This document shows positions 1 through 25,431 of a stretch of 64,000 nucleotides of DNA, in pieces (position 1 is the stretch's first letter; each line of letters starts with the position of its first letter). Under the pieces are notes generated by a model, which was given only the letters and a program-made list of their open reading frames with translations, was not told the DNA's origin and did not search any database. The translations under genes were made by a program, and so were the position numbers. Origin of the DNA: Mermis nigrescens (Eukaryota; Nematoda; Enoplea; Mermithida; Mermithidae); NCBI GenBank assembly GCA_036768485.1, contig JAVLUZ010000142.1, positions 19,465,735-19,529,734 of the forward strand. Reading direction: 5' to 3'.

Positions 1-697
1 ATAAAAATTATGTAATAATTTTTATAGATTTTTGGTTCGAAAGAGGAATTATGAATTTTGCACAAAATGATAAATAAAGGTTTTACCCAATGAAATCCGG
101 CAAGAAATAAAGTAGTGGCCGGCCTAATTCCAAATCCTAACTGCCTGCAATATATTGCACCTCTAGGCAGTTGCTTTTTGTGCTTTTACCAAATAAAAAC
201 AATTTACAAGCAATGGCGCTGATATAGTCAGAAACAACATGCCAGAAAACGCAAAGGCTAATCTGCCACCAAACTAGACTAATCAGATCAATAATCGTAG
301 GGGGAATGGCCTACAGTAATATAAGAAGAAAATATTGTATAATGTGTTTATAACAAAAATTGTGTGCTTCTTGCACATAGATTTTTTGGGTCTCCGCACA
401 GGTTCAACGTGAATAGCGGTCATGTCACCTATGTTTTAAATGAAAAAATTTATAGGGGACTTGTAGGGGGTTCCGCAGTAAAAGGTCGCATCTTTGTATC
501 CCTCACGACACATAGCGACAATAGTCCAACCAAAAGACACTGCGTGGTCGGAATGCCTCCGCATGTTGTACTATCGATGATCTGAAAACTATGGCTGGAT
601 TGCCAAAGTGGAACCAAAAGACCGGATGGTCGGAATTGGTGCACTAAGGTGTGCAAAGGCCGTACAAGTAACGGCACGTGTAGATACACTATCTACA
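1..697 (-). repeat. Family A LTR, partial (U3 side), leftward
   Basis: Read on the minus strand from 697 this begins with the palindromic terminus TGTAGATAGTGTATCTACA and follows the same order of blocks as the two LTRs at 5291 and 18111. At the far end (about 1-190) it still matches their AT-rich part and the segment around 5780-5960. It is clearly more diverged than those two are from each other. The U3 start faces gag sequence of another element at 698, so this looks like the 5' LTR of an element lying left of the window, or a solo LTR, inserted into that gag. CTAG at 698-701 would be one copy of its target duplication; the other copy is outside the window. Confidence 0.8.
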
Positions 698-3391: not shown

Positions 3392-3950
3392 AAACGTTGA
3401 GAAATATGACCTTGGGTAAGGAAAATTTCAGTACGTCAAAATTTTGCCAAGAATAGATGTTTCGAATTTGACCTTTTGTCGTTTCATAAAACAGGTTTTT
3501 TCATGTGAATAGTATGTGCATACGTAAAGCAAGATATACCTGTACGTGAAATGAGCGAAAATACGTAGCACTAAGCCTAAGGCGCAAAGAAACGTACGTG
3601 GTTATAAAAAGACATAGGTAAAAACCTAGATATTGAAAATTCGTCGTTGAGGAGAAAAATGATGAATTGTTGCCAGAGGGCCGACGTTTATAGAAAAATG
3701 CGAGCAAGAAAGCTGCCTTCGTCGCCAGAGAGTTGATAGAAATAGAAAAATAACAATGACTTTACCATGATTCACAAAATCTGTTACCACGGACGCTTAC
3801 TTAAAATGCGCACTGCCACAATCGCGGTCGATACAACAACAAGGGCGAACGAAATGTTACACATATTTAGATGGCCAAAAATAATGATTTTCGGATCGAA
3901 AAATAAATTTAAGATGACTGATCAGTTTGGCTGTAGCTAGCAGCCTAAAA

Positions 3951-4983: not shown

Positions 4984-5149
4984 TCTGTTTCACTCAACTT
5001 CGGTCAAAAATTTTAAAACTATCTCCGACAATAAGCTGACAGATTGCGATTATAGCATTGATCTGATATACATTTAGATATCGTAACCCTCGGCTTACTG
5101 TCGGTGGAAATTCTTATAATTTATGCACAAAGTTATGTGAAACAGACTA
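4984..5149 (+). mobile_element. Small TIR MITE, copy 1, clipped by family B LTR
   Basis: About 166 bp bounded by inverted ends TCTGTTTCACTCAACTTC and TTATGTGAAACAGACTATA. Inner blocks are TATCTCCGACAATAAGCTGA and ACCCTCGGCTTACTGTCG. Its outer end (CTTATAG in copy 2) is missing because the family B LTR is inserted there. No coding capacity. Confidence 0.75.
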
Positions 5150-5195
5150 TAGACGTCCGAGAAACCCTTAGGGTCAATTTTGGGAAGTAACACTT

Positions 5196-5290
5196 ATAGT
5201 CTGTTTCACTTAACTTCGTGCGTAAATTCTAAGAATTTTCATCGACAGTAAGCCGAGGGTTACGATAATTATATATCAGATCAATGCTAT
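5196..5290 (-). mobile_element. Same MITE, copy 2, left half (split by the LTR element)
   Basis: Inverted relative to copy 1. It begins CTTATAGTCTGTTTCAC and shares the TCGACAGTAAGCCGAGGGTT block with copy 1. It stops at CTAT (5287-5290), where the family A element is inserted; the rest resumes at 19337. Confidence 0.8.
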
Positions 5291-6515
5291 TGTAGATAGT
5301 GCATCTACACAAGCCGTTACATGTACTGCCTTTGCGCACCTTAGTGCGCCAATTCAGACCATCCGGTCGTGTGTTTCCACTTTGGCGACCCAGCCATATT
5401 TTCAGATCGACGATATGACATGCGGAGGCATTCCAACCACGCAGTGTCAATTGGTTGGACTCTTGTCGCTAGGTGTCGCGAGGGATACTATGATGAGACC
5501 TTTTTACTGTGGAACACCCTCACAAGTCCCCTATCACTTTTCACATTTAAAACATAGGCGACCGCTATTCACGTTGAGCCTGTGCGGAGACCTGGAAAAT
5601 CTATGTGCAAGTAGCACACAAATTTTGTCATAAACACATTTTACAATAATTTCTTCTTCTATTTCTGTGGGTCAATCCCCTCAGGATTATTAGTTGGTTG
5701 GTGCCAGTTTGGTTTTTGCTTTTGCGGCGTGTCATCTTCGACTATATTAGCGCCATTTATTGTTCATTGTTTTAATTTGGTAAAAGCACAAAAATCCACT
5801 GCTTAGGGGTGCATTATATCGCAAGCAGTCAGGAATTGGGATCAGGCCGGCCATAGCTTTATTTCTTGCCGGATTTCGTTGGGTAAAGTTTTTATTTATT
5901 GTTTTGTGCAAAATTCATAATTCCTTTTTCAATCCAAAAATCTATAAAAATTATTACATAATTGTTATAGTTGATGACAGCCCGGAATAGAGCTCTTTGT
6001 TGTTGTGTTTTAAGTACAGAGTGCTGTTGGAACCAGAAATCGTAAGTAGTTTCGCCATAGGTAATCTAGTGCGAAACCCTTTCAATTCTTTTCGCGAAAA
6101 ATTACTCTTTTGGTCTAAAAAGGTCTAAGGACCTAGGGCGAATACCGGGTTTATCTAATTACCCCTGGTTAAGATCTGCGGTCGGCATCTCCTTCCCTTT
6201 TTCTCCATAGGTACCGGACCAATTACGTCCGTGGAGATTTTAGGTAGTTTGTATTCAGGGTCAGCTTGGAAGAGTGCAGGTTTTTACCGCAGCTTCTTGA
6301 CCAGCGCTAGGTGTAGCATAGGTACTTAGGTAAATCCCGAAGGTACTTACGGGGGTTCGCTGCTTTCATAGTTGTTGTGTGTTGGGTATCTTCTCTGACG
6401 GCGTGCTGTCAGTTTATTTATCCGTACATACTTCAAGTGCTGAATCAGCCAACTTGTTTGCGCGCGCTAAGATACTCCAATAACTCGAAGGCGGACGGAA
6501 CCCACCTAAGTTACA
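5291..6515 (+). repeat. 5' LTR of family A element
   Basis: 1225 bp, starting TGTAGATAGTGCATCTACA and ending CCTAAGTTACA. It aligns end to end with 18111-19336 with few differences: one base in the terminal palindrome, a 1-2 base indel near 5520, and a four-base ATGA difference near 5560. A candidate promoter or poly(A) site was not pinned down. Confidence 0.93.
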
Positions 6516-6516
6516 G

Positions 6517-6529
6517 TGGAGTTTCCCCC
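6517..6529 (+). other. Putative primer-binding site
   Basis: TGGAGTTTCCCCC lies one base after the 5' LTR end (ACA, G, TGG...), the expected position for tRNA priming. A tRNA ending GGGGGAAACTCCA would fit; its identity is unknown. Confidence 0.6.
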
Positions 6530-6985
6530 TTAAGGTTGCTCGCGACAACCAATCCGGTGTCTGTCATCATTTAAATTAATACATAATATTTTCTTTACCC
6601 AAAAATATTTATTTCGGCATTCTAAAAATGTGTATTGTTTCGTTCGTATATTTTTATCGTATCGTCCATGTCGTGGCAGTGCGCAGATAAGTTAAGCGTT
6701 CGCGGCAAAGAAATTTTGTATTCGTGGTAAAGTCGCTGGTATTTTTTCTCTATATACCTATTCGACTAAGCTAAATATTTTCGCCTTTCGCCACACTCAT
6801 AAATTCTTTTGTGCCTCTCTTTCGTACTCGTTGCTATTTTGGCATATAGAGGTACGTTTTCAGGAAAAACCCATACCTAGAGGGGTCCAATTCGAAAAAA
6901 TTTTTCAGATTTTCAGATAGTGGATTTTTTGGGAGAAAAATTTTCTTTTACCTAACGTTCATATTTCAAACGTTCCATTTTTATA
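6530..6985 (+). other. Untranslated leader of family A element
   Basis: AT-rich leader between the PBS and the first gag ATG at 6986, with no long open frame. It would hold packaging and leader signals by position, but none can be recognised. Confidence 0.5.
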
Positions 6986-7740
6986 ATGGGTGGTAAGAAA
7001 ATTTTACGTACCCCTCCAGCTAAAAAGGTGCCGCCCCTAGCCCGTCCTGCGCGCCCAGTACAGCCTGATCAAACCAGTTCTTCGGCGAGCGATAACACTA
7101 TTTTACCCCCTTCGGTACATAATACCTCTGTTATCCCTTCTGATAACGAGTCTACTACTGGCAGTGTGCATTCCGGAACCGGTAATTCTGCTGATATGCA
7201 AATTGAAGTAAATTCTGATGCAACGATTGTTAATAATGATCTTAACTTGCGTGCGAGTAACGATGATAATCAGACGGAAAACGAAGCCGTTTTACCTAGT
7301 CGAACTTTTGATGTGGAAAGTAATGCATCTGAAAAGCAAAATGAGGATGAAACTCGTCCTAATTTGGCAAATTCTGACCGAATTCTTTCGACTATTTACC
7401 TATGAATGATCGTATGCCTGTTGATTTTAGATCGTCGTGTATGCGTGAGCAGCGTGTGCAAAACCCTCTCTCTGCGGATAATTTATCTACTTTTGCGCAT
7501 TCTTCACAGCACGCGTCTAATCAGCAAAGTGTTGAAAACGCGCCTACTTTTTCAGAATTTTTGCAGCGCCCTTTAAATCAGCTAGCGCCTGAATTTGTGC
7601 CTAATACTGTAAATAATACGCAACATCATTCTGTAAACCCGCCGCCCTTGCAGTATTTTCCTTCTAACGCTGGAAAGCGCGCCCATGCAGCACGCGGTCG
7701 CATTTCAGGAGCAATAATTTTTCAGCGCACAATAATTTAG
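6986..7740 (+). pseudogene. gag N-terminal region, frame-broken
   Basis: Begins with ATG at 6986 and a basic segment (MGGKKILRTPPAK) also seen in family B. A Ser/Thr/Asn-rich acidic stretch follows to 7405. A second frame overlaps by a few bases at 7402-7740, and a third at 7761-7994 is Ser/Arg-rich. The frame changes suggest at least two indels before the capsid. No catalytic motif; by position this is a matrix-like or linker part of Gag. Confidence 0.65.
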
Positions 7741-7984
7741 CCAATCCTAACAACGAATCCATGCCAATCAGGGACAATACAGTCGCGCCAGCCAGCCAGC
7801 GCCATGTCAGATTTTCAGATGAGGACTCTAGCTCTTCGCAGCAGGAAGATTCGCATCGCTCGCGCTGCAGCGAAAGTTCGCGTCGCAGTTCTCGTCGCCA
7901 CGCCATAATTCAGATTCTTCGTCTTCTTCGCGCGATAAATCATCTGTTGCTGAAGCTATTAATCGCGGCCCTTTTATACAGCAA

Positions 7985-10132
7985 ATGCATATAGCAGTAG
8001 CTGCTAGGAAATCTTTTCAGGGTGAAAAAACCGATATTTGGAAATTTTTCAGCAAATTTGAAAGACTGGCAAAAATATATAAAATTGATAAAAAAGATCG
8101 AGCTGAATTTGTTTCATCATTTTTCGACGACTATGCGTTAAATTTGTATGAAGCGTTACCTCAAGAAGTGCGTAATTCTTACACTAAGACTAAGTACGCT
8201 ATGATCGCGGAATTTCGTCCTCTCGATCACGATACGTTATATGACCACTTTCTTGACCGTAAGCAACAGCCCAATGAGTCTGTTCAAGCTTACTATCTCG
8301 CACTTCACAAACAATTAAGGCGCGCTAGACCTCATATTGGAACTGACTCTGAGCAATTTAACGAAATGCTTTGCCATCAATTAAAGCGCGGTATGTTGCC
8401 TGAAATTTCAACTGCAGCCTATCAACGCGCGCCTGAAGCTGAGTTACATGAATTTTTGCATAATGCTAAATGCGCAGAGTATGCAGCGCGCCAACTTGTA
8501 GCGAAAAAAGCGCCAACGCCCTATGTCTCGACCATTGCCAATCCTGCCACCGGTGCAATTCCTAAGGAATCTGTGCGTTTTTCTAATAATGCTGATTCTG
8601 ATCGTTCGCGCAATAAGACGTTTTCTCGTTCAAAACGCCCCAAAAATGAGCAATCTTCAGCGCGTAAATTTTGCGATTTTTGTAAGCGCACGGGTCATGT
8701 TGAGGAACAATGTTTTAAAAAGATGAGACAGCGCAAACTTGACGAAAATGCACAGCAAGCGAAATTCGAACCCGCCGCGCGTCAACGTAGTCAGTCGCGT
8801 TCTTGGAATAGTCGTAATCGCTCATCGTCGCGCTCAAATAATAATAATCGACCTCAGTCTAAGCCTAGGTATCGCGATCAAAGCCAAAATCGTCAACCTA
8901 TCCCTCAAAGTTCTGACGCACGTTTTGATTCTAGGCGCTCGCGTCCAATTTTTAGGCAAAACTATAACGATTACGCGCCAAATTATCGCCAAAACTATCA
9001 AAATCAGCCCTATGATAATCGCATGCAATCGTATGACTATCGCCAAAATAATCCTTATGTGACTCATCCGGCAGAACAGCGTAATACGTATTATAATTCC
9101 AATTATCGTTCTGCGCCGCGAAATTATCCCCCTAACGTCACATATGTAGCGGATTTCCAGCCCGCCTTAGATTATCCCCCGCCGCAACCGCCCTACTCGC
9201 CTAAGAAAAATGCAAACATGGTTACTTCTCATCAATCTGAAGAAACTAAGCGGGAAGAAAATTTTGCATCCCAAGCATTTTTGGAAGAATATGATAGATT
9301 GCAGCGAAGATTAGCGGTTTTAGAAAAAATGACTTCATCCCCCACCTTAAATCAGGATCCTGAAATTCCGATAGTTAGTCATGCAGGTACAAATCTACCC
9401 ACCATTTTGGCTGAAATTCATGGTGTAAAAATTCCGGCACTAATTGACACTGGCTCGCAAGTCACAATGATGACTACTGCAGCATTTTTAAGACTAGGTT
9501 TCAGGTTACCTCCGAAACAAACGTCTAAAGTTGTGCACGGTGTAGGTGACACAACAGTAGTTGTTCGCTTTAATTTTAATATGACTATAACTATCGCGGA
9601 TCATTCTATTCCCACGTTAGTGTCTATCATCGATAAATTGCCAGAAGACATGCTTCTCGGTTTTGATTTTTGCCGTTCCGCGTTACTCTGGGTGAATCCC
9701 ATCGAAGATTGTGCGTTTATAAACGGTATAAAATTAAATCTCTTATCACCGAGTGAAAAATTGCAGTTTCGTACCAATCCAAACGCTAAGATTGCATGTC
9801 CTATCTGCGTGCATGTTTCAATTTCAGAGCCCATCACGATTTTGCCACGCCACGAATTAATAACACCTGCTTATATAAGTCATGGTTCCTATGATGCTGA
9901 TATTGCACTTTTCGAGCCCGATCCAGATTTTATGCGCAGAAGTTCACTTTTTGTCGCCCCTGCTATCGTCGACACTTCAGTTTCAGTTTTTCCTTTGAGG
10001 TTATGTAACATCTCGAAATCGCCCGTTCAGGTCGACACTGGAGAGCTAATTGGATCCCTAACGTCTGATGTTGAGGTCGTGTCTCATGTTTCTGTTTCAG
10101 ACGATCGCTCGCTCGAACTTTTTCCTCGATAA
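7985..10132 (+). CDS. Gag capsid-nucleocapsid fused to aspartic protease
   Basis: 715-codon open frame. Residues about 10-150 are a Retrotrans_gag-like capsid (IWKFFSKFERLAKIYK, EFRPLDHDTLYDHFL, QQPNESVQAYYLAL). A single CCHC knuckle (CDFCKRTGHVEEQC) follows near residues 228-241, then an Arg/Ser/Asn/Tyr-rich RNA-binding-like stretch to about residue 400. From about residue 465 comes a retropepsin: the active site is LIDTGSQVTMM, and DMLLGFDF is the flap-distal hydrophobic-LG block. The ORF ends in TAA at 10130-10132. The shown start is simply the first ATG of the open frame; the real protein probably begins at 6986 in an intact relative. Confidence 0.88.
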   Translation: MHIAVAARKSFQGEKTDIWKFFSKFERLAKIYKIDKKDRAEFVSSFFDDYALNLYEALPQEVRNSYTKTKYAMIAEFRPLDHDTLYDHFLDRKQQPNESVQAYYLALHKQLRRARPHIGTDSEQFNEMLCHQLKRGMLPEISTAAYQRAPEAELHEFLHNAKCAEYAARQLVAKKAPTPYVSTIANPATGAIPKESVRFSNNADSDRSRNKTFSRSKRPKNEQSSARKFCDFCKRTGHVEEQCFKKMRQRKLDENAQQAKFEPAARQRSQSRSWNSRNRSSSRSNNNNRPQSKPRYRDQSQNRQPIPQSSDARFDSRRSRPIFRQNYNDYAPNYRQNYQNQPYDNRMQSYDYRQNNPYVTHPAEQRNTYYNSNYRSAPRNYPPNVTYVADFQPALDYPPPQPPYSPKKNANMVTSHQSEETKREENFASQAFLEEYDRLQRRLAVLEKMTSSPTLNQDPEIPIVSHAGTNLPTILAEIHGVKIPALIDTGSQVTMMTTAAFLRLGFRLPPKQTSKVVHGVGDTTVVVRFNFNMTITIADHSIPTLVSIIDKLPEDMLLGFDFCRSALLWVNPIEDCAFINGIKLNLLSPSEKLQFRTNPNAKIACPICVHVSISEPITILPRHELITPAYISHGSYDADIALFEPDPDFMRRSSLFVAPAIVDTSVSVFPLRLCNISKSPVQVDTGELIGSLTSDVEVVSHVSVSDDRSLELFPR

Positions 10133-11939
10133 ATAAGGCTTTACAGGGTTCCATCGCTAACTCTAAGGAACAGCAGCAAATTCGTGATCTTTGTCATAAA
10201 TATAATTCGATATTCGCTTTAAAAGGCGAACCACTCGGTCGCACTCCGCTCGTTAAACTATCACATTGACACAGGGGATAATCCCCCTGTTGTAGGTAAA
10301 ACTTATCGTGTCGAACACGCAGCGCCGACAAGTCATGCAACGAATAATAAACGAAATGATCGCGGAAAAAGTCATCAGACCAACAACTAGTCCCTGGGCC
10401 AGTCCTTTGTTTTTAATCGGGAAAAAAGATGGTTCCCTCCGCCCAGTTGTGGATTATCGACGATTAAATGATGTGACAAAAACTCAAATTTATCCTCTAC
10501 CTCAAATTGATGATTATTTTGATGCCCTAGGGTCTGCAGCTTACTTTAGTACGCTAGACTTAAAATCTGGGTATTGGCAGATCCCCCTTGACGAAAAATC
10601 GCGTGAAAAAACCGCTTTTATCTGTCCTGTAGGTCACTACGAATTCGAAGTGTTACCTTTTGGTTTAAAAAACGCCCCCGCCGATTTTCAGCGCCTTATG
10701 GAGCTTGTTCTCGCTGGTTTAAATTGGAAAACCTGTCTCGTATATATCGACGATATAATTGTGTTTTCGCGCACGTTTTCAGAGCATCTTAAAAATCTAG
10801 AAGATGTCTTTCGCGCGCTTCAAAACGCAAACTTAAGGGTTAAACCAGAAAAATGTCATCTAGCCCATGCAGAAGTCCAATTTTTGGGTCATCGCATAAG
10901 GTCGCTAGGTATTGCTCCTGACTTGACTAAAATTGCAGATTTGATCAATTTTCCAGTGCCAAAAACGGTGAAAGCTTTACAGAAATTTCTTGGTCTCGTT
11001 CAATGGTTCAAAAAATTTGTAAAAGATCTCGCGAAAATCGCGAAACCTCTTTTTCGTTTATTAAGAAAAGACACGGAATTTCTTTGGACTGAAGAACATC
11101 AAAAAGCTTTTCAAACGGTAAAAGATGCCTTCACTTCACCACCGATTTTGCAGTTGCCTAAGTTCGATAATGACCATCAATTCATCCTGACAACCGACGC
11201 AAGCAATTATGCGCTAGGTGCCATTCTAACGCAGAAACATCTTCCATCTAAAAATCGTTTCATTCTTGGTTATGCTAGCCGTGTTTTAAACTCGGCCGAA
11301 TGTAACTATGCCACTTCTGAGAAGGAGGCTTTAGCGGTTGTTTGGGCAATTAAGCATTATAGGCATTATCTTTATGGTAAAAAATTCATCGTGGAAACAG
11401 ATCATCAGGCGCTTACTTGGCTCGTAAATGTAAAAGATCCTTCCAGTCGTTTAAGACGCTGGGGTTTAAAATTACAGGAATACGAGTATGAGGTTGTTTA
11501 TGTACCAGGCGCATATAACTGCGCTGCGGACTTATTATTGCGTCATCCTAAGTACGATCGCGACGAACAACGTTATAAACTCGAACGTAAACCCGTTGCT
11601 AACATCGCTAACCTCGAATCCGAAGCGTCTGAGTCTGACGATGACAACAAACCACCTGATATGAGACAACAAACCATCGCGCCAAAACAGCAAGCTGCGC
11701 AAAAAGATCATCCGCCAGTTTTTTATGAACGCATCACTTTATCTGAAGCTGAAAAAGCAGAAATTCTGTCGCCTGCTAAACTACTTGCTGAACAACGTCA
11801 AGATGAAGAGTTAAACAAAATTCGTGAATTGCTCAACGACTTTACAACACGTAAATATCGCGACGAATTTTTCTTGCTAAATAAGATTCTTTATCGCAGA
11901 TTTCAGCCTAAGCGTGCAGCTAATACCATTCATCAGCTT
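10133..11939 (+). pseudogene. pol: reverse transcriptase and RNase H
   Basis: The region 10139-10270 reads as the usual pre-RT segment (KYNSIFAL, EPLGRTPL) but has a stop and frame change near 10267. The main open frame starts at 10308. RT motifs: SPWASPLFLIGKKDG, FSTLDLKSGYWQIPL, PFGLKNAPADFQ and the catalytic YIDDIIVFS. RNase H follows with LTTDAS, SEKEALAVVWAIKHY and ETDHQALTWL (catalytic D, E and D). The frame is ended by a 165-bp MITE at 11948 placed just before the integrase zinc domain. This would be cytoplasmic cDNA synthesis machinery in an intact copy. Confidence 0.92.
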
Positions 11940-11947
11940 GTCATTCC

Positions 11948-12112
11948 CAGGCACGTAGCTGTGGGGGGGACTGGGGGGGTCCGGATCCCCCCAAAATTCA
12001 GAAAAAACCCAAAAAATAGGACTTTTTACATGTTATTCTGTACTATTTTTGGCTTAGACCCCCCAAAATTGGTGTTGGTCCCCCCAAAATAGGAGGGCCA
12101 GCTACGTGCCTG
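11948..12112 (+). mobile_element. 165-bp hAT-like MITE inserted in pol
   Basis: Perfect 14-bp terminal inverted repeats CAGGCACGTAGCTG / CAGCTACGTGCCTG are flanked by a perfect 8-bp duplication GTCATTCC (11940-11947 and 12113-12120). The interior is rich in G and C runs (CCCCCCAAAAT). Removing the element and one GTCATTCC leaves a continuous RNase H to integrase reading frame, so it is a clean secondary insertion. It has no coding capacity. Confidence 0.93.
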
Positions 12113-13513
12113 GTCATTCCAAAATCGCTTCGTAGTTTCATCTTAACCGAATTTCATGATTCCATCTTTGGAGCCCATTTCTCTGCGCGAAAAATCTTAC
12201 CCGCCATTCAGCTTCGTTACTGGTGGCCTAGAATGGAGAATGATGTGCTTGCATGGTGTAAGAATTGTGAGGTGTGTTTGCAGCGTAAGGTAGCGAATAA
12301 CCCCACCACCATACCTCTGCAGCCCATCGAAGTTTCAGCACCCTTTGAGTTAATCGCGTGTGATTGTCTCCATATGCCTCGCTCGACGTCCGGGAATGAT
12401 CAAATTGTTGTTTTCATGGACTATTTTACTAAGTATGTTGAAGCGTTTGCAGTGTCTGATATAAAAGCGGTCACCATAGCAAACCTATTATTGCACAAAG
12501 TAATTCCTAGACATAGCATTCCAAAGCGATTTTTAACTGATCAAGGCTCAAATTTCACATCAGCGCTAATTTCCGAAGTTTGCAAATTACTAAGTGTTCA
12601 AAAAGTTTTCACAACCCCTTATCATCCTCAGTGTGATGGGTTGGTTGAACGGTATAATCGAACACTCATCGATGGACTTTCTAAACTAAGCGCGAGAAAT
12701 CAATAGGACTGGGAACAATTTTTGCCCTTTGCTTTATTCGCGTATCACGCAACGCCGCAGTCATCTACAAATATTTCGCCATTTGAGATGCTGTACGGTC
12801 GTGAACCTTCTTTTCCACTCGATATACAGCTTTTAAGCGATCTCGCGTTGAATCCTAATATACCTAACATCGCTGAAAAATATCTTGCTGATCTGAAACT
12901 TACGCTTCTTAACTTACACGATATTGCTAGCGAAAATCTTGCTAAAGCGCGTAACCATCAGAAAAAGGAGTATGACAAAACAACGCGCGAAAGTAAATTT
13001 GCAGTTGACGATATTGTATATCTCAACAATAAAGCGGTAATTCAGCCTGAAATTGGAAAACTTTCACCTAAACAATTAGGTCCATATCGCATCAAAGCCT
13101 TGCCAACGCCTGAAACTGCGCGCATCATCTATTTGCATAATCCTTTAATCGAACATGTAGTGCACCGTAATCGCCTCTTACCTGCCCCAAAGTTGCCCTA
13201 TTCCGATCTCATTGCCGAAAAGTACGCATACGTACCCGGTGATTTTGTTTTAGTTAAGCTACCGCGTCGACCTGTGTGTCCGGCAGTAGTTATAACTTTT
13301 GAGGAATTAGCGGGCCGGGAAAGGAATATGAGGGAGTGTGCGCCTATTCGTTTGTTAATTGGTGCTAAATCGGCACATGCCGTGCCCTTAACTAACGTTA
13401 CACCTTTTGCAGAGCCATGGCTGAGCAGCGTGCCCCAACAGAAGAGGACGTCGTGGACCGAGATCGTCCGACGTTTAGCCTCGGGAACGACAACGATGCC
13501 GCCCATTTCCTAG
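12113..13513 (+). pseudogene. pol: integrase with GPY/F C-terminus
   Basis: The zinc-binding HHCC module (FHDSIFGAH ... CEVCLQRK) spans about 12150-12290. The DDE core follows: first D in ACDCLHM, second D in LTDQGSNFTS, E in LVERYNRTL. A TAG stop at 12704-12706 breaks the frame; it resumes at once with LPFALFAYHATPQSSTNISP. The C-terminal part carries KLSPKQLGPYRI (GPY/F type) and a basic tail ending at 13513. The end overlaps the third coding region by 97 bp in another frame. Confidence 0.9.
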
Positions 13514-15216
13514 TAGCGCTCGAAGCTGCGGCTGCTGCAAAGCAGTATCGCGCAGAGGTGTGCCCTTTACAGTTCCTTTACTTCGAAAACGACGAACACG
13601 TGACTCCCAATCTTCGCGAACCATCACACCACAAAACGCCACACCACTACGATTGTATCTATGCCCAACGTAAGTGGTGGCTGGCAACAATGGACCGTAT
13701 TCCGTTGTCAGCGCCATATGTGCCCAAAAACGCCATTCGACGTACCGTAATGGTCGAAACACACGAACAGTCTTATAACGCGATACGAACACTTTTCAGG
13801 TCGTCTAATCATCTGAACAGCCAGTGCTTTTTTGGCTTCGACTCCGAGCATGTCAACGACCGTTCGTTCATGCCCTACCGCGTTTGGGAACGATATTGGC
13901 AACAACTCGATCCCAACTACATGCAGGCCAACAGTCCTTTTGTTCGATACATTCAGATCGCCGACGTTCGTGGCCATGTTTTTGTTTGGGATATTTCTAG
14001 GTTTCCACAGCCCCCGTTTGGGCTGGCGGAGTTGCTTGAGACACAGCTGCGAGATGTTTTTCTAGCCTGCCACGATCCTAGTAACGATAAGATTGCCTAT
14101 TTTCACGTCTACGGCCCACATCGCGCAGATGTAGTGGCCTATTTACAAAATCGTGATAGCTTTCCTCCACCGCGTTCGGTTTTCAGGGCCAATATTTTAG
14201 ATACGCTGGTGATGAGCCGCTTTTTCATGGTTGAACATCGTATCGATGCCGGAAATCATCGCCTAAAAACGTTGGCAGCTTTCTTCTTCGATATGCAGCC
14301 GGATTCTTCAGCAGTCACGTGGATTGGCCAGGCATGGAACATGCCTTTGACGGGTCCTATGTTACGGTATCTCGTTTTAGACCAGATTTTCTCGCTCGAT
14401 GTCTACATTCTTATCGATACGTATTCGCCAAATATGAGTCAAATTTCTCCTCGTCGTGTTCCACCAGGTTTTACTTTTGAGGGTGACGAACGTTCCATCC
14501 AGGCAGCGCCGCCGCCGGAGCCGTTATACATCAAGCTGTCGAAATTACCGCCCAATATGAAACAAAGGCGAAAAGCCATACGACGACATTTCCGCAGATC
14601 ATTGACAGCTGATTCGGACGGCGAGGATCCAACGATGATTATTTTAGATGGCTATGAGTTAGACGACCAGGGTAGGCCGCCATTTCCGCCGCCGTCGCAG
14701 CGTTCGCCATCGCCGACGCAGCAACAAGTTCTCAACGGTATTATTGCTAATTTGCCTTCCACATCGCGTAACATGCCTGAACCGATGGATACAAACGTTT
14801 TAGATAGGGTTCCAGTTGTGGCCGCAACCAGCGCCCCGTTAGGTCGGCCCCTGGATGTCAAAAATTTGCCTTTCGTCTCTCAACCGGCACGTACTCGAAA
14901 ATCGCGTTTTGAGCCCTTACAAGCTGTTCCAGCTTCAGTGGCTCCTCCTCCGCCTGCTTACTTGGCGCCGACGGATATCCAAAATATCATGGCCTCAATG
15001 ACGTTGCCTTTCGCCGCCAAGCCTTTGCCGTCAATGCGTATTCCTCGGATTTTGCAGCCGCAACCGACGGAACCAGTTGTCCTAACTCCGGCTGAACAGC
15101 CGATGCAGGTGCAGGATAACAAGGAACAACGCCGAACAACCGCCTACGCAGAATTATTTTCAGGAAACCATGCAAGAATTGCAGGAAACAGGTCAACCTT
15201 GCCTGTCTATCCATAA
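13417..15216 (+). CDS. ORF3a: DEDDy 3'-5' exonuclease-like protein of the retrotransposon
   Basis: 599-codon ORF whose ATG overlaps the integrase end. Residues about 130-335 fit the RNase D/WRN/Egalitarian-type exonuclease fold. Exo I is FGFDSEH (D142, E144). The likely Exo II aspartate is D238 in HRADVVAYL. Exo III is Y318-x3-D322 in LRYLVLDQ, preceded by the family's typical LKTLA block and W/PLT run. All four acidic positions and the tyrosine of DEDDy enzymes are present, so it may be catalytic, acting on RNA or DNA ends; the substrate is unknown. Residues 1-130 are unassigned, and about 345-590 are Pro/Ser-rich and disordered-looking. I know of no standard Ty3/gypsy protein of this kind; the assignment rests on motif spacing only. 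Confidence 0.75.
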   Translation: MAEQRAPTEEDVVDRDRPTFSLGNDNDAAHFLVALEAAAAAKQYRAEVCPLQFLYFENDEHVTPNLREPSHHKTPHHYDCIYAQRKWWLATMDRIPLSAPYVPKNAIRRTVMVETHEQSYNAIRTLFRSSNHLNSQCFFGFDSEHVNDRSFMPYRVWERYWQQLDPNYMQANSPFVRYIQIADVRGHVFVWDISRFPQPPFGLAELLETQLRDVFLACHDPSNDKIAYFHVYGPHRADVVAYLQNRDSFPPPRSVFRANILDTLVMSRFFMVEHRIDAGNHRLKTLAAFFFDMQPDSSAVTWIGQAWNMPLTGPMLRYLVLDQIFSLDVYILIDTYSPNMSQISPRRVPPGFTFEGDERSIQAAPPPEPLYIKLSKLPPNMKQRRKAIRRHFRRSLTADSDGEDPTMIILDGYELDDQGRPPFPPPSQRSPSPTQQQVLNGIIANLPSTSRNMPEPMDTNVLDRVPVVAATSAPLGRPLDVKNLPFVSQPARTRKSRFEPLQAVPASVAPPPPAYLAPTDIQNIMASMTLPFAAKPLPSMRIPRILQPQPTEPVVLTPAEQPMQVQDNKEQRRTTAYAELFSGNHARIAGNRSTLPVYP

Positions 15217-16299
15217 TTTTCTCAATTTTCGCGATTGGCTTGGACCAGAAGCAGGTTTGGAACTGTACACAGGTTTGCGTACTGACATTCAACTGTGTTA
15301 CAACTCGATGTACGCCCATTATTTGCAGTATTGTCGAATCTCTAATCCGCCGGAGAGGCCAATCATTCCGCTACGCTTGCCCACGGATCCGGATCCAAAC
15401 GAGGCATTTAGGAATTGGGTTGCGCCGCGTTTTATTACGCAGCCTTCTGTCTTTCACCGCCAGTTCTATCCAGATCCGTTGTTTACGCGAAATCACATGT
15501 TTATCACGACCGGTTATATGGTCTACGAAGTAAACATCCAATACGTCGCAAACCATTCTTTTCAGCCGACGCCGCCGCAAATGAACGTTCGACTCGGTGT
15601 CACAATTCAGCCTGAGTTCTTTCCGCATCGTATCCAGCCTCAGCCTGATCATACGGCGCCGTTGTGTTTGACGATGCTGCAAATGGTTGATATTTTCGAA
15701 GCGTTTCGTGGATTCGAGTGAGAATACGAAACCACTTTCAGCCGCAAACCGGTGTTTGCTACTGCGCACGTGTTGCAAGCTACATCACTGTTGCGCTATT
15801 TAGATCAATGTTTCTTCATTTTCGCGACGTTGTATGGCGATCCTGGAATTGCCTGGCGAATGTGTGAACAGATTCGACGGATGCTTCGTGCCGCCTTCTT
15901 TGGTCCGACGTATACTCAATTTCCGAGGGAAGCCTTCGTAGAATTTCCTGAGTTAGCAGAAGAAATTGAGGATCCGGTTGTGCTACATCGCGATATTCAG
16001 CTAATTCGCGAAGCCACAGATCCTGACTTAACGGTGCCTGCTCAATTTGGCCGTCACAAATCGCGCCAACACTCTACGCATTATCTTCTGAAAAAACTAC
16101 CTGACGAATTGAACAATATTTGCCAAAACCAGCAGAGACGCCAATTGCACAAACGACTCGCTGATGCGGAGGACCCAAGTGGCCCCCAAGCGAAGAAACG
16201 ACGAAACGTTTCAGATCTTTCCTTACAGGCTCAGATCAACTTACGCCAGTCCCGAATGATAATCGAGAAAGCCAATCGTGAAACTCAACCGATGCCGCC
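15110..16299 (+). pseudogene. ORF3b: unknown middle part of the third coding region
   Basis: Open in a different frame from ORF3a and overlapping its end. It enters from a Pro/Gln-rich stretch near 15122 and contains SIHNFLNFRDWLG, MYAHYLQYC and many aromatic residues. A single TGA at 15719-15721 interrupts it, and the same frame continues at once to 16299. The second half has FIFATLYGD and a helical, charged end (KKLPDELNNIC, QAKKRRNVSDLSLQ). No signal peptide or membrane segment is visible, so it does not look like an envelope protein. The frame switch near 15.1 kb may be a mutation or a true frameshift site. I do not recognise the fold. Confidence 0.55.
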
Positions 16300-16307
16300 A
16301 TTGCCAC

Positions 16308-16567
16308 CACACCTGGGCGTGGGGGTTTTCAGGGGGTATGCACCCCCAGAAACCAAAATACCCCCCAGAAATCAAAATACCCCCCCAGAATTCAATTTTT
16401 GAAATTTTTTTCGCTTTTTTCGCAATTTTTTGATGCCAATGGATAGTGCTTGATGAGAAACGTCGAAAAATGGTGTTTTTATCACCATACCATCGTTTTT
16501 AAGGCCATTTTTTGACCTTCAAAAAAATCTTGCACCCCCCCCAGAAATTTCTTGCTGCCCACGTATG
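16308..16567 (+). mobile_element. 260-bp MITE (CAYACGTGGGC family) inserted in ORF3
   Basis: Ends CACACCTGGGCGTGG and CTGCCCACGTATG, with an 8-bp duplication ATTGCCAC / ATTGCCAT (16300-16307 and 16568-16575). The interior has A/T runs, GTCGAAAAATGGTGTTT and CCCCCCAGAA blocks. The same family occurs at 23604-27232 (interrupted), 41310-41451 and 44722-44956. The 268-bp net addition shifts the frame by one, exactly matching the frame change between ORF3b and ORF3c. Confidence 0.88.
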
Positions 16568-17579
16568 ATTGCCATGCGTTACTGTTGCACGTAAGCCAGG
16601 ATCTTTAGCCATGGCCTCTGAAATAAGACGTGAGGATGAGAACGCGTACATGGAACGCTTACGATCCTATCACGAAGCCATTCCTTTATTAAGGGCCAGC
16701 CGATACGTCCGGAATAAATACGAACATACTCAACGAGCTATGCGTGCCAATCAAAAATGACGAGAGCGACGCAAAAGGCAAGCAATGATCTATCGCCAAC
16801 TGGCGTTATTATCGAAACCATCTGAAAACGAACCCGGACCCTCTTCTTTGTCTCGTTTCAGACAGAATTCGCCCCAGTTACCGGCAGCATGGACGCCGCG
16901 TGAGCAATTGCAGCAGCGGCCAACGCAGCAACACCAGCCGCGTTCAACCCCGCCGCCGCGAGCAGTGCAGCGCCAAAGGTCGCCGTTGCATCAACGCGAA
17001 GGTTTTGGGCATGGCTCATTACTGACGCATTGGTTGCAGCAGTCGGCTGACAATGTCGGCGGTTATCAACAGTGGCAATTCGAATCGTCGCAGCAGCATT
17101 CGCCGCAGCGTCAACGCGAAGGCGTTGGGCGTCGCCCATCACCAACACGTTGGTCGCCGCGGTCAACCGTTAGTCTCGATCGGCCGCAACACGAACGCCG
17201 TTCAATCTCCCGGTCAAATGAGTTTTGGGGTCAACCACAACCACAACCATACCATTTGCGCTCTCCTTCGCGCGAATCCGGCAGTTTTGGGCGCTTTCCT
17301 TCTCCACCGCGCCGTGATCAAAGGTTCGAGGAGTTCCGCCATCCGGCTACTCCGTCTAGTCAACCACGAGTTTATTATGGATTCGAAGCACCATCGCCGG
17401 ATGCCGTTTCGTACGACGAGCATCGTAGCCTGCGCAAACGCATGCAACTGCGCGTAAATTTATTGGATGAGGATCACCCGTCGAATCGTCGCTCTACGGA
17501 CTCGAGTGACTCGTCGCGTCGCTCGATTCGATCGTCTCGTTTCTTTCCGACGTCGAAACCCGACCATAAACGCCATTGA
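16568..17579 (+). pseudogene. ORF3c: Gln/Pro/Ser/Arg-rich tail
   Basis: Continues ORF3b after the MITE. It opens with a charged helical segment (SEIRREDENAYMERL), is broken by TGA at 16758-16760 and reopens at once (RERRKRQ). A low-complexity tail of repeated HQREGFG / RQREGVG and SPT/RSPSR motifs then ends with TGA at 17577-17579. SR-rich and basic, suggesting nucleic-acid binding, but this is inferred from composition only. It may be translated as one product with ORF3a and ORF3b in an intact relative. Confidence 0.55.
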
Positions 17580-18097
17580 TAGCCACGTTTGGCTCGCTTA
17601 CCACATTAATTTGGACTCTGCGATTGTGCCGATGGCCAGCAGCATTTTATTCGTTTGGATCAACGTTGTCTTTTTCGCGTCTTGTGTAAAGCGTCTTTAT
17701 TATAAAACTACTAGTTCGCGGTCCGTTATTGCCTGTATCTTTAAAATTTTTGTCTTTAAATTTTGCATAATCTCGTCATTTTAAGCTTGTTGATTCCTGA
17801 ACTTGCTCAGAGCAAGTGTGGCCTTATTTTATCTTAACTTTATCTAAAACCTACGTAATTTCCTTTTATCCAAATTTATTTTTCAGGTTTCCGCACTACT
17901 TGATAGAGGCTCGGTCATGGATTCAGCCGCCATACTTTTTAACTCAAAATTTTTTTCCCATCCACAGGGGGCCCAACCAAAATTTCGATAAATTACTCAA
18001 ACTTTTCCATTTGTTGGATCCCCAACAAATTTTTCTTATATTTCAATAATTTTCATTCCAATTAAAAAATTCGGCCCGTGTTCCGAATTTTTTCCCG
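17580..18097 (+). other. Non-coding 3' region of family A element
   Basis: AT-rich 518 bp between the end of the third coding region and the polypurine tract. No convincing coding sequence is seen. Confidence 0.5.
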
Positions 18098-18110
18098 GTG
18101 AGGGGAGGAG
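18098..18110 (+). other. Polypurine tract
   Basis: GTGAGGGGAGGAG immediately precedes the 3' LTR start TGTAGATAG. This is the position and composition expected for plus-strand priming. Confidence 0.85.
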
Positions 18111-19336
18111 TGTAGATAGTGTATCTACACGAGCCGTTACATGTACGGCCTTTGCGCACCTTAGTGCGCCAATTCAGACCATCCGGTCGTGTGTTTCCAC
18201 TTTGGCGACCCAGCCATATTTTCAGATCGACGATATGACATGCGGAGGCATTCCGACCACGCAGTGTCAATTGGTTGGACTCTTGTCGCTAGGTGTCGCG
18301 AGGGATACTATGATGCGACCTTTTTACTGTGGAACACCCCACAAGTCCCCTATCACTTTTCACATTTAAAACATAGGCGACATGACCGCTATTCACGTTG
18401 AGCCTCTGCGGAGACCTGGAAAATCTATGTGCAAGGTGCACACATTTTTTGTCATAAACACATTTTACAATAATTTCTTCTATTACTGTGGGCCAATCCC
18501 CCTCAGGATTATTAGTTGGTTGGTGCCAGTTTGGCTTTTGCTTTTGCGGCGTGTCATCTTCGACTATATTAGCGCCATTTATTGTTCATTGTTTTAATTC
18601 GGTAAAAGCACAAAAATCCACTGCTTAGGGGTGCATTATATCGCAAGCAGTCAGGAATTGGGATCAGGCCGGCCATAGCTTTATTTCTTGCCGGATTTCG
18701 TTGGGTAAAGTTTTTATTTATCGTTTTGTGCAAAATTCATAATTCCTTTTTCAATCCAAAAATCTATAAAAATTATTACATAATTTTTATAGTAGATGAC
18801 AGCCCGGAATAGAGCTCTTTGTTGTTGTGTTTTAAGTACAGAGTGCTGTTGGAACCAGAAATCGTAAGTAGTTTCGCCATAGGTAATCTAGTGCGAAACC
18901 CTTTCAATTCTTTTCGCGAAAAATTACTCTTTTGGTCTAAAAAGGTCTAAGGACCTAGGGCGAATACCGGGATTATCTAATTACCCCTGGTTAAGATCTG
19001 CGGTCGGCATCTCCTTCCCTTTTTCTCCATAGGTACCGGACCAATTACGTCCGTGGAGATTTTAGGTAGTTTGTATTCAGGGTCAGCTTGGAAGAGTGCA
19101 GGTTTTTACCGCAGCTTCTTGACCAGCGCTAGGTGTAGCATAGGTACTTAGGTAAATCCCGAAGGTACTTACGGGGGTTCGCTGCTTTCGTAGTTGTTGT
19201 GTGTTGGGTATCTTCTCTGACGGCGTGCTGTCAGTTTATTTATCCGTACATACTTCAAGTGCTGAATCAGCCAACTCGTTTGCGCGCGCTAAGATACTCC
19301 AATAACTCGAAGCGTATGGAACCCACCTAAGTTACA
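18111..19336 (+). repeat. 3' LTR of family A element
   Basis: 1226 bp with TGTAGATAGTGTATCTACA start and GTTACA end. It is almost identical to the 5' LTR and is followed by the CTAT target duplication. Confidence 0.93.
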
Positions 19337-19412
19337 CTATAATCGAAATCTGTCAGCTTATTGTCGGAGATAGCTTTAAAATTTACGACCGAAGTTGTGT
19401 GAAACGGACTAT
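19337..19412 (-). mobile_element. MITE copy 2, right half
   Basis: CTATAATCGAAATCTGTCAG... continues the MITE left at 5290 and ends GTGTGAAACGGACTATAAG, the inverted counterpart of CTTATAGTCTGTTTCAC at 5196. Together the halves give one MITE of roughly 165 bp split by the 14 kb element. Confidence 0.8.

Positions 19413-19896: not shown

Positions 19897-19900
<4 letters not shown>
19413..19900. other. Intergenic, nothing recognised
   Basis: AT-rich sequence between the retrotransposon flank and the microsatellite. No coding, RNA or repeat signature was found apart from a short TGTAAAGTTTACACC palindrome near 19668. Confidence 0.5.
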
Positions 19901-19943
<43 letters not shown>

Positions 19944-19953
19944 TACATATACA

Positions 19954-20044
<91 letters not shown>

Positions 20045-20082
20045 GCGCGCGCACGTACACACACACACACATACACATACAA
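19901..20082. repeat. (CA)n microsatellite
   Basis: About 180 bp of AC dinucleotides with a few ATACAT interruptions and an ACGCGCGCGC segment near 20041. It lies about 290 bp upstream of the SAP18 ATG and is expected to be polymorphic and Z-DNA prone. Confidence 0.97.
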
Positions 20083-20367
20083 ACAGAGACAACTCAAAGT
20101 TACAATTATAGATTTTGCTCACAGCAGAAGCAAAAGTATCTTATATAATGTTAATGTCTTTTTTTATATATTACTGTAGCCGAATTTAATCAAAAAATAT
20201 CACTAAGCTAGCTAAACTGAAGCAGCGCAGCGCCAGCAGCAGAAGAGCAGAAGTAGGGAACGTTGTTTTGTTATCAGACCGGCGTATTTTTGGATTGATT
20301 CGTTTAACTGTCACGCAGTTCGCTATTTTAAGCACTAGTTAATATTCGCATTTTCGTTTTGAACTGG

Positions 20368-23400: not shown

Positions 23401-25384
23401 AAATTAGAGCTGTGCCGGGGCCGCCTTTTTTGCCGGGGCCGGGGCCGGGGCCGGGGCCGGGGCCTGGCCGGGGCCAATAATAGCGTGCTTTACCATGCTC
23501 ATAGTACGACCCTGCCCTTCCCCTTATATGTACCTATGCATATATTCTTGTTTGTAGATATGCACGTCAAGCGTTAATATTTGTTGGGATTACAAGATAT
23601 AACAGAACATGGGCATGGGGGGATCTAGACCAGTGATCGGACCGAGGGTACTTTTTGGACCCTCGGCCTCGGCCGAGGCCGAGGCGACTTAAAATCCTTG
23701 CCTCGGCCGAGGCCGAGGCCGAGCCGAGGGTAATGCCGAGGGTCAAGCTTATATACCTATACCCATAAATAGTACTCTTAGAATATTTTGTAGGTACATA
23801 AGCTAGAGAATAATCGTAATATTTAACACTTTATCGAACTAAAACAAATGTTTTTTGGTGTTGGCCAGAATTTTTATTTCAATCTGATGAAGCAGATAAT
23901 TATTTCATCATCGAAATCTAGATCATCTGAATCAAAGTTAGCCTCATATATTTCGCCTTGTTGTGCTATCGCGTTATCGTCGTCGTCAGCCTTCATCAGA
24001 TTCTTTGAAGTCACACTATTATAACCAACTGCTTTGTGATTGTGCTTTACAAAAAAGAGTCCTTGAACGTTTTATGGTAGCAGACGAATGCGAGAATTAC
24101 TGTATTTTCTGATCCATCCAGTAGCGGGAGGGGGCGGTATACAAACTTTTCCAAAAAAGTCAACGAAATAGCATTTTTCGGTGTTTTACATTGTATACTT
24201 TTACATAAAATCACTTTTGAAGTCATATTTTTCTTGAAATTCTAGAATTTTCGACAATTTTGTGCGAAAAAAGATCATTAAATTTCTAAGACTTTAACAA
24301 AAATCTGGCGCGAAGCGCCGAGAAATTTGCAAAATTAAGGCGGATAGACGTCTAGAAGCATGATTTACTGCTTGATTTCCTGTATTTATAGCATTTGATG
24401 CAAAACATTGAAATTTTTTATTGAAAATAGAAGAAAACTATGCAAAAATAGCTGTTTCTGCTGTTAAAATTGTTTTGAAACCTACATGAACAGAAAAGGG
24501 CTTCCAGGGCCCGGTTTCACCACAAAGCTACGAGTAAGGAGTTACGGGTGACGGTTTCATATGTACAGGCTACGAGTGCTACAAATTTCCGTTTCACCAA
24601 AAACTGAGATTTACGAGCCACGGGTCACGAATAACGGCTGGGCGGTTTCACCAGATATTACGATCGAATGTTACGAGTGAAAAGATTCGTAAATTTTGTA
24701 ATATTATCACGGATCAAAACGAGGTCCGTAGGACTCGTAAAGTAGTGGCAGACTAGTGCGTTTAATAGTTTTCTGGTTTGTTTTTTCTCAATTTGTTTCA
24801 CTTTCGTGCACAAACCTAAATAATATATATACTGGCAGCACATGTAAAGGGTAAGAAGATTAGCATTAAAAAAATAATATATTTTTCAAAAAATGTTTTA
24901 GAGAAATCCCATAAAATTCGATTCTTAAGCTGCATTCTTGAGTAGTAATTCGAAATTTTATTTCTTTAGCCCTTGTTAGTAATGTTCGCAGCTTTTTTAT
25001 GAAAAATATTACAATCACTTAGACATTTTTTCATGAATTGCGGAAATCAGACATTTTTGATTAGATTTCTGAAAATTAGAATTTCATCAAATTCCTTCGG
25101 AAAAGAGCCGACTGCATATTTTATGTACGTATTAATGACAACTAAGAATGATTTGTTAAATTTGAAAATTGAAATAATACGCTGTGATATACTTTTAGCT
25201 TCGTAACGTCTCTGAATATGATTTAATTGATTTCGTTTATAAATTATAATAATAATAATGATAATAATAATAATAATAATAATAATAATTATTATTATTA
25301 TTATTATTATGATTATTATTAGTATTAGTATAATAATAATAATAATAATTATTATTATTATTATTATTAGTATTAGTAATATTC

Positions 25385-25431
<47 letters not shown>

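What the first reader, a model, noticed from the sequence alone, without database searches (positions are those of the whole stretch)
13417..15216. Ty3/gypsy-type retrotransposon carrying a DEDDy 3'-5' exonuclease ORF
Seen: after integrase, overlapping its end, an ORF has FGFDSEH (D142/E144), D238 in HRADVV, and Y318-x3-D322 (YLVLD) after an LKTLA block, the ordered signature of DEDDy nucleases. Known: RNase D, WRN and Egalitarian families share this layout; standard Metaviridae carry gag, pol and sometimes env. Inference: the element has captured a nuclease that may trim cDNA or RNA ends or counter host defence. I am not aware of a described Ty3 lineage with it, but cannot search.
Basis: partly seen in the sequence, partly recalled or inferred. 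Interest (0 to 1): 0.88.

Follow-up and report, generated by a model that had tools for sequence, protein, structure and literature searches.

The report
Retrotransposon carrying an exonuclease gene
A virus-like jumping element (Ty3/gypsy retrotransposon) in an unidentified eukaryote carries, right after its integrase gene, a gene for a predicted enzyme that would nibble RNA or DNA from its 3' ends; many copies and other element families in the same genome carry related genes, and the sequence changes between copies show that selection has preserved this part.

Summary
The ORF is real and the DEDDy reading is right, with one correction. A Ty3/gypsy element lies at 5291-19336 (LTRs 97.3% alike, TSD CTAT). 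ORF3 (13417-15216, 599 codons) overlaps the end of integrase in the env position. Pfam, PDB and protein searches find nothing directly. The element's own genome supplies the link: other LTR families carry an ORF after integrase that passes the PF01612 cut-off (best 3.6e-10), and ORF3 matches a profile of those ORFs far beyond chance (hhalign P 2.8e-10, 0 of 1000 shuffles; 46.9 bits against 4.8 for the best of 5000 shuffles). ORF3 gives 84 matching places, so it is no one-off insertion. dN/dS in the domain is 0.11-0.41 in the five copy pairs where it could be measured. Against activity: 17 of 38 other copies read have Asn at 224. DEDDy ORF3s are already described in bdelloid rotifer LTR elements (Rodriguez 2017), so the kind is known; a separate clade with its own insert, low dN/dS, a conserved 3' splice-site sequence and PWWP-like integrase tails are additions. 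Function is inferred.

The parts
5291..6515 (+). 5' LTR (TG...CA), flanked by TSD CTAT at 5287-5290
6986..7740 (+). two short ORFs between leader and gag (6986-7405 and 7402-7740)
   Evidence: no Pfam match for the first, the second not scanned
7985..10132 (+). gag and aspartic protease ORF
   Evidence: PF03732, PF13650
10308..12092 (+). reverse transcriptase and RNase H ORF
   Evidence: PF00078, PF17917; best solved match is the Ty3 RT
11949..12119 (.). approximate extent of a foldback insertion that interrupts the integrase zinc-binding region in this copy
   Evidence: read from the sequence
12233..12706 (+). integrase core ORF
   Evidence: PF00665
12722..13513 (+). integrase C-terminal ORF: GPY motif and a PWWP-like tail
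   Evidence: aligned with the PF00855-positive tails of L125 and L131
13403..13416 (+). likely 3' splice site CCTTTTGCAG|AGCC in front of the ORF3 start codon
   Evidence: the same in L087, L089 and L107, and CCCTTTTGCAG|ATCC in family B (L136)
13417..15216 (+). ORF3, 599 codons: DEDDy exonuclease domain at residues about 127-340, proline-rich tail after it
13840..13848 (+). codons 142-144, ExoI D-x-E
14086..14088 (+). codon 224, ExoII Asp
14368..14382 (+). codons 318-322, ExoIII Y-x3-D
15170..16402 (+). ORF4 (ORFs 15170-15721 and 15752-16402 of one frame with a stop between); in family B the matching part is in one 1250-aa frame with ORF3
16611..17579 (+). ORF5 frame, basic and S/R/P/Q-rich, with an in-frame stop before 16785
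18100..18110 (+). purine tract before the 3' LTR
   Evidence: read from the sequence
18111..19336 (+). 3' LTR, followed by TSD CTAT at 19337-19340

Best explanation
The window holds a Ty3/gypsy retrotransposon whose third ORF, in the place where retroviruses have env, carries a DEDDy-type 3'-5' exonuclease domain that is likely active, likely translated from its own spliced mRNA, and likely trims 3' ends of the element's RNA or cDNA. Shown by calls: the element, the homology of the domain, its presence in many copies and in other element families, and low dN/dS. Inferred: splicing (from a 3' splice-site sequence before the start codon that family B shares), catalysis (from the conserved residues) and the substrate. 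Because ORF3 is a separate reading frame and not part of pol, the protein would be made apart from the polyprotein and act in trans as an accessory factor.
For: Element. Domain: ORF3 against the profile of eight other-family ORFs, hhalign P 2.8e-10, 0 of 1000 shuffles; hmmsearch 46.9 bits against 4.8 for the best of 5000 shuffles and 2.0 for the best of 155 real pieces; five of five of those ORFs given to Pfam pass the PF01612 cut-off. Five catalytic residues invariant in the 8 rows of A4 (rows left out are told under Tried and rejected). Copies: 84 places at E<=1e-3; five family B loci 99.0-99.96% alike over 7 kb, with no stop in ORF3. Selection: domain dN/dS of the window copy 0.179, 0.409, 0.299, 0.109, 0.142 against L087, L089, L094, L107, L113; against L136 and L141 dS is saturated, pN 0.172 (these are the seven pairs computed). 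Splice site.
Against: No direct match of ORF3 over cut-off to a DEDDy family in Pfam, NCBIfam, PHROGs or the PDB, and no relative in the protein or viral collections. Both structure predictions are poor (pLDDT 43.7 and 50.1). Of 38 other copies read (of 84 places), 17 have Asn at 224 and 19 have all five residues. Two of nine ORFs of other families have lost D or E of ExoI (R129, R125). A codon-usage test did not set ORF3's frame apart. No expression or activity data.
Confidence: 0.55

Rival explanations
1. ORF3 is a counter-defence nuclease: it degrades or trims host small RNAs (piRNA- or siRNA-like) that would silence the element.
For: Accessory position and separate frame; the parts outside the domain change fast while the domain is held (identity of the window copy to L136 0.50 and 0.45 outside, 0.72 inside), with domain dN near that of gag (0.195 and 0.199). 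Solved cellular kin include MUT-7 homologs (a role of mut-7 in silencing is named).
Against: No small-RNA data; fast change outside the domain also fits a structural role; many copies look inactive at 224.
Confidence: 0.25
2. ORF3 is a catalytically weak or dead DEDD fold kept for binding RNA, like EXD1 or Maelstrom.
For: Asn at 224 in 17 of 38 copies read, scattered over the tree of family A; the precedent is named in the Discussion of PMC5408684.
Against: D142, E144, Y318, D322 hold in 36, 38, 36 and 35 of 38 copies; D224 holds in the 7 family B loci read and in the 8 rows of A4. The 224 codon follows a C (AAC-GAT), and C>T/G>A differences from the window copy are commoner at CpG (593 of 8510) than elsewhere (695 of 17174), so mutation after insertion can explain part of the Asn.
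Confidence: 0.17
3. A one-off host gene fragment inserted in this copy.
For: None found; before no second copy of ORF3 was in view.
Against: 84 matching places; 16 other family A loci and 8 family B loci without a stop over nearly all of ORF3.
Confidence: 0.01
4. ORF3 is an env-like protein and the DEDDy resemblance is convergence.
For: Position after integrase, as in env-bearing elements.
Against: No transmembrane-like stretch in the ORF3, ORF4 and ORF5 pieces measured (highest 19-residue hydropathy 1.43); homology to PF01612-positive ORFs.
Confidence: 0.02

Closest known systems
Bdelloid rotifer Juno and Vesta LTR retrotransposons with a DEDDy ORF3 (Rodriguez, Kenefick and Arkhipova 2017, PMC5408684)
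   Same: LTR element with an ORF3 after pol that codes for an RNase D-like DEDDy exonuclease; element ORFs more alike than cellular ones; found in more than one lineage (here).
   Different: All Juno, Vesta and TelKA elements have a dUTPase between PR and RT and LTRs are 159-551 bp; here no dUTPase among the matches, with 175 nt between the PR and RT ORFs, and LTRs of 1225-1226 bp. The paper reports no chromodomain after GPY/F; here there are PWWP-like tails. The paper called its cloned env-like and GDSL-like ORF3s mostly neutral and cloned no DEDDy ones; here domain dN/dS is low. No bdelloid sequence was held, so kinship of the ORFs themselves is untested.
Cellular DEDDy exonucleases of PF01612 (WRN, EXD2, MUT-7/Nibbler, RNase D, NrnC)
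   Same: D-x-E, D, Y-x3-D in order, and the W...L[TS] block before ExoIII.
   Different: Eight of eight element ORFs in A4 have 35-46 residues between the ExoI Glu and the Gln of the second strand, nine of nine cellular ones in A2 14-16; ORF3 alone does not reach the Pfam cut-off.
Dada DNA transposons with a DEDDy exonuclease domain (PMC3706591, passages)
   Same: A mobile element with a DEDDy-type domain, in Laccaria and Ectocarpus, with four catalytic residues conserved.
   Different: DNA transposon; the domain sits inside the transposase.
Cer1 of C. elegans with CERV (PMC10309623)
   Same: Ty3/gypsy element with an accessory protein made from a spliced mRNA; 3' splice sites TTTCAG or TTGCAG (abstract and passages).
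   Different: CERV is an RNA-export factor; the word exonuclease does not occur in the held main text.

Membership tests
Ty3/gypsy (Metaviridae) LTR retrotransposon | LTRs with TG...CA ends and a target-site duplication | tested here: met
   97.3% alike, CTAT on both sides
Ty3/gypsy (Metaviridae) LTR retrotransposon | Order gag-PR-RT-RH-IN | tested here: met
   Pfam order in the window
Ty3/gypsy (Metaviridae) LTR retrotransposon | RT closest to Ty3 among solved RTs | tested here: met
   Ty3 RT 6.5e-98, best of 205
PF01612 DEDDy exonuclease | Pfam gathering score reached by the protein itself | tested here: not met
   ORF3: no match; family B ORF3 14.1 bits, cut-off 23.6
PF01612 DEDDy exonuclease | Homology through proteins that pass the cut-off | tested here: met
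PF01612 DEDDy exonuclease | Catalytic D, E, D, D with Y four residues before the last D | tested here: met
   D142, E144, D224, Y318, D322 in this copy; 19 of 38 other copies read have all five
PF01612 DEDDy exonuclease | RNase H-like DEDD fold | tested here: inconclusive
   Poor models; fold search never available
PF01612 DEDDy exonuclease | 3'-5' exonuclease activity | not testable with these tools
   -
Bdelloid Juno/Vesta elements | dUTPase between PR and RT | tested here: not met
   No dUTPase family among the matches of the gag-PR and RT-RH ORFs; only 175 nt lie between them
Bdelloid Juno/Vesta elements | ORF3 belongs to the same DEDDy clade | not testable with these tools
   No bdelloid sequences held
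Env-bearing element | Transmembrane/fusion protein after pol | tested here: not met
   Hydropathy of the ORF3, ORF4 and ORF5 pieces

The most novel reading that the evidence does not exclude
LTR retroelements keep their own exonuclease family, distinct from the cellular DEDDy enzymes by an insert between the first two strands, passed down or exchanged among Ty3/gypsy lineages as a virus-like accessory gene that disarms small-RNA silencing by trimming guide or target RNA 3' ends, paired with integrases that read chromatin through a PWWP-like tail.
Probability: 0.2. Interest if true: 0.88.

Novelty: new variant of a known kind. Interest (0 to 1): 0.62.

Why it matters
Among the papers listed by the searches, as far as I read them, DEDDy ORFs in LTR elements are described only for bdelloid rotifers, where it stayed open whether they help the element. 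[quoted passage not shown]

Tried and rejected
Direct searches of ORF3 led nowhere: Pfam, NCBIfam, PHROGs, PDB, the 5.8-billion-protein set (twice), phages, IMG/VR. NCBIfam gave two weak rows for the cut domain, one of them a DEDD exonuclease model at 0.097, far below cut-off. RT, integrase and RT-pattern scans of IMG/VR found no relative. Profile A1 (six proteins) gave only P 0.016; leaving families out of A2, the query's P ranged from 1.9e-4 to 0.011, against 1.7e-12 or better for true members, so cellular profiles alone would not have settled it. A MAFFT test put nine of nine key residues in register, against at most six in 1000 shuffles and five in 146 real pieces, but it matched D238 to ExoII, which the later alignment overturned, so it is not used as proof. 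I first took the Glu at 238 of family B for the DEED change reported in bdelloids; dropped, since the ExoII residue is 224. A first tree of copies mixed strands and was redone. In one search the RH and ORF4a rows were out of frame and are not used. The last protein search was swamped by NrnC-like proteins. Rows dropped: A4 has 6 of the 9 other-family ORFs (R122, near-duplicate of R121; R125 and R129, with a lost ExoI residue); the profile has 8 of 9 (without R122); L086 (the window copy) and L145 (same place as L113) were left out of the 38 copies, which are 29 loci and 9 fetched, of 84 places. The SL1 leader sequence of nematodes (recalled) has no exact match in the genome; the host stays unidentified.

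Full report
The element. The LTRs are 5291-6515 and 18111-19336, 97.3% identical (K2P 0.018), with TG...CA ends and the 4-base duplication CTAT on either side. Inside lie gag and protease, RT and RNase H, and integrase in Ty3/gypsy order; the RT matches Ty3 best among solved structures (6.5e-98). This copy is not intact: integrase is interrupted by a small foldback insertion and split into two ORFs, and gag-PR and RT lie in separate ORFs. ORF3 is open over 599 codons.

What ORF3 is. Taken alone it is below the cut-off of every detector used. Against nine cellular DEDDy proteins the resemblance is real but thin: hhalign P 5e-4, 0 of 1000 shuffles, 0 of 155 real E. coli pieces; by hmmsearch 1 of 5000 shuffles scored higher. 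The genome settles it. A search with PF01612 finds 22 places, 19 of them in frames of 285 codons or more. In six of seven such loci that I checked, integrase lies upstream (L130 is the miss), and for two families pieces fetched upstream (L146, L147) hold RT, RNase H and the start of integrase. Five of five ORFs given to Pfam pass the PF01612 cut-off, best 3.6e-10. A single-sequence search with the ORF3 domain already finds them (R118, 1.3e-8 in a set of nine), and against their profile ORF3 scores P 2.8e-10 and 46.9 bits with the best of 5000 shuffles at 4.8.

Active site. In alignment A4 (ORF3, its family B relative and six other-family ORFs) 19 columns are invariant, among them D142, E144, D224, Y318 and D322. 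Across 38 other copies of families A and B (of 84 places) the five residues hold in 36, 38, 21, 36 and 35; all five in 19. At 224 the other 17 have Asn, scattered over the tree of family A. The codon follows a C (AAC-GAT), and C>T/G>A differences from the window copy are commoner at CpG sites (593 of 8510) than elsewhere (695 of 17174), so decay after insertion is a partial explanation; Asn in several of the deeper branches remains a point against activity in all copies.

Spread and selection. ORF3 gives 84 matching places (some are pieces of one copy, and the tool calls its counts lower bounds). Sixteen other family A loci and eight family B loci have no stop over nearly all of it. Five family B loci are 99.0-99.96% identical over 7 kb, so that family either moved recently or was duplicated with its surroundings; insertion sites were not compared. 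One other-family ORF (L118) gives 93 places at E<=1e-5. dN/dS of the window copy in the domain is 0.179 (L087), 0.409 (L089), 0.299 (L094), 0.109 (L107), 0.142 (L113); against family B (L136, L141) synonymous sites are saturated with pN 0.172. The proline-rich tail gives a higher ratio than the domain in five of these five pairs. Between A and B the domain's dN (0.195) is near that of gag (0.199) and above RT (0.037) and integrase core (0.047). A codon-usage comparison was uninformative.

Kinship. In an ML tree of 17 domains the eight element ORFs form one group (ultrafast bootstrap 97) apart from WRN, EXD2, MUT-7, RNase D, NrnC and others. All eight have a longer segment between the ExoI Glu and the second strand, 35-46 residues against 14-16 in the nine cellular proteins. 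The tree holds few cellular families (Egalitarian and Rrp6 sequences were not printed by the tools), so a cellular sister cannot be excluded. RTs of two of the other families are about 48% and 56% identical to that of the window, so the ORF is old in these elements or has been exchanged.

How it likely works. A 3' splice-site sequence stands directly before the start codon (CCTTTTGCAG|AGCCATGG) and is kept in family B although the DNA there is about 75% identical; similar sequences stand before ORF4 and ORF5. ORF3 would thus come from a spliced mRNA, apart from Gag-Pol. In family B ORF3 and the region matching ORF4 form one frame of 1250 codons; two family A loci (L089, L094) have open frames of 1304 codons around ORF3. 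The likeliest job is trimming 3' ends of element RNA or cDNA; counter-defence against small RNAs and plain RNA binding are the rivals. None was tested.

Known work. PMC5408684 (abstract, Introduction, Methods, Results 3.1-3.4 and 3.6 with part of 3.5, Discussion and legends read) describes DEDDy ORF3s in bdelloid Juno and Vesta elements and in Athena. PMC6431247 and PMC5718144 (passages) repeat this; PMC6338049 (one passage) names a DnaQ-like exonuclease domain in LTR elements and cites three papers together, of which I saw Rodriguez 2017 and passages of Ustyantsev 2017 (PMC5348765, no occurrence of DnaQ) but not Novikova 2008. PMC3706591 (passages) has DEDDy domains in Dada DNA transposons. 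The searches listed no other case that I recognised from titles, abstract starts and the passages read; subscription papers are mostly not held. The ORF is therefore a new variant of a known kind.

Noticed in passing
L125:3-974 and L131:2-1135 (integrase C-terminus); window about 13230-13400 for the family A counterpart: The integrases end in a PWWP domain (PF00855, 9e-14 and 1.5e-11); the tails of families A and B align with it but are below Pfam detection. This would be a chromatin-reading tail, like a chromodomain. One paper search listed three papers, none with such an element by title or abstract start.
   Followed up: partly
window 1-3900, minus strand: A second element copy: its LTR is 85.6% identical to the 3' LTR here, but its gag is only about 46% identical in protein and runs to within about 15 bases of the LTR, without pol or ORF3. 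It looks chimeric or internally deleted.
   Followed up: partly
window 16611-17579: ORF5 frame: basic (net +19 over 16785-17576), rich in S, R, P and Q, no Pfam match; could be an RNA-binding or export factor.
   Followed up: no
window about 16320-16570: An insertion related to 44723-44907 (80.6%) sits between ORF4 and ORF5.
   Followed up: no
window 52928-53961 and 4984-5290: Large palindromic repeats (379-nt arms, 89% complementary); the element itself sits in a repeat with inverted halves.
   Followed up: no
window 19900-20085, 25207-25521, 27641-28005, 57126-57509: Tandem arrays: (CA)n, AAT/ATT-type, 199-bp and 93-bp units.
   Followed up: no
G000 contig C728 (L116, L132) and L120: PF01612 matches in short open frames (95, 59 and 161 codons), probably exons of the host's own DEDDy genes.
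   Followed up: no
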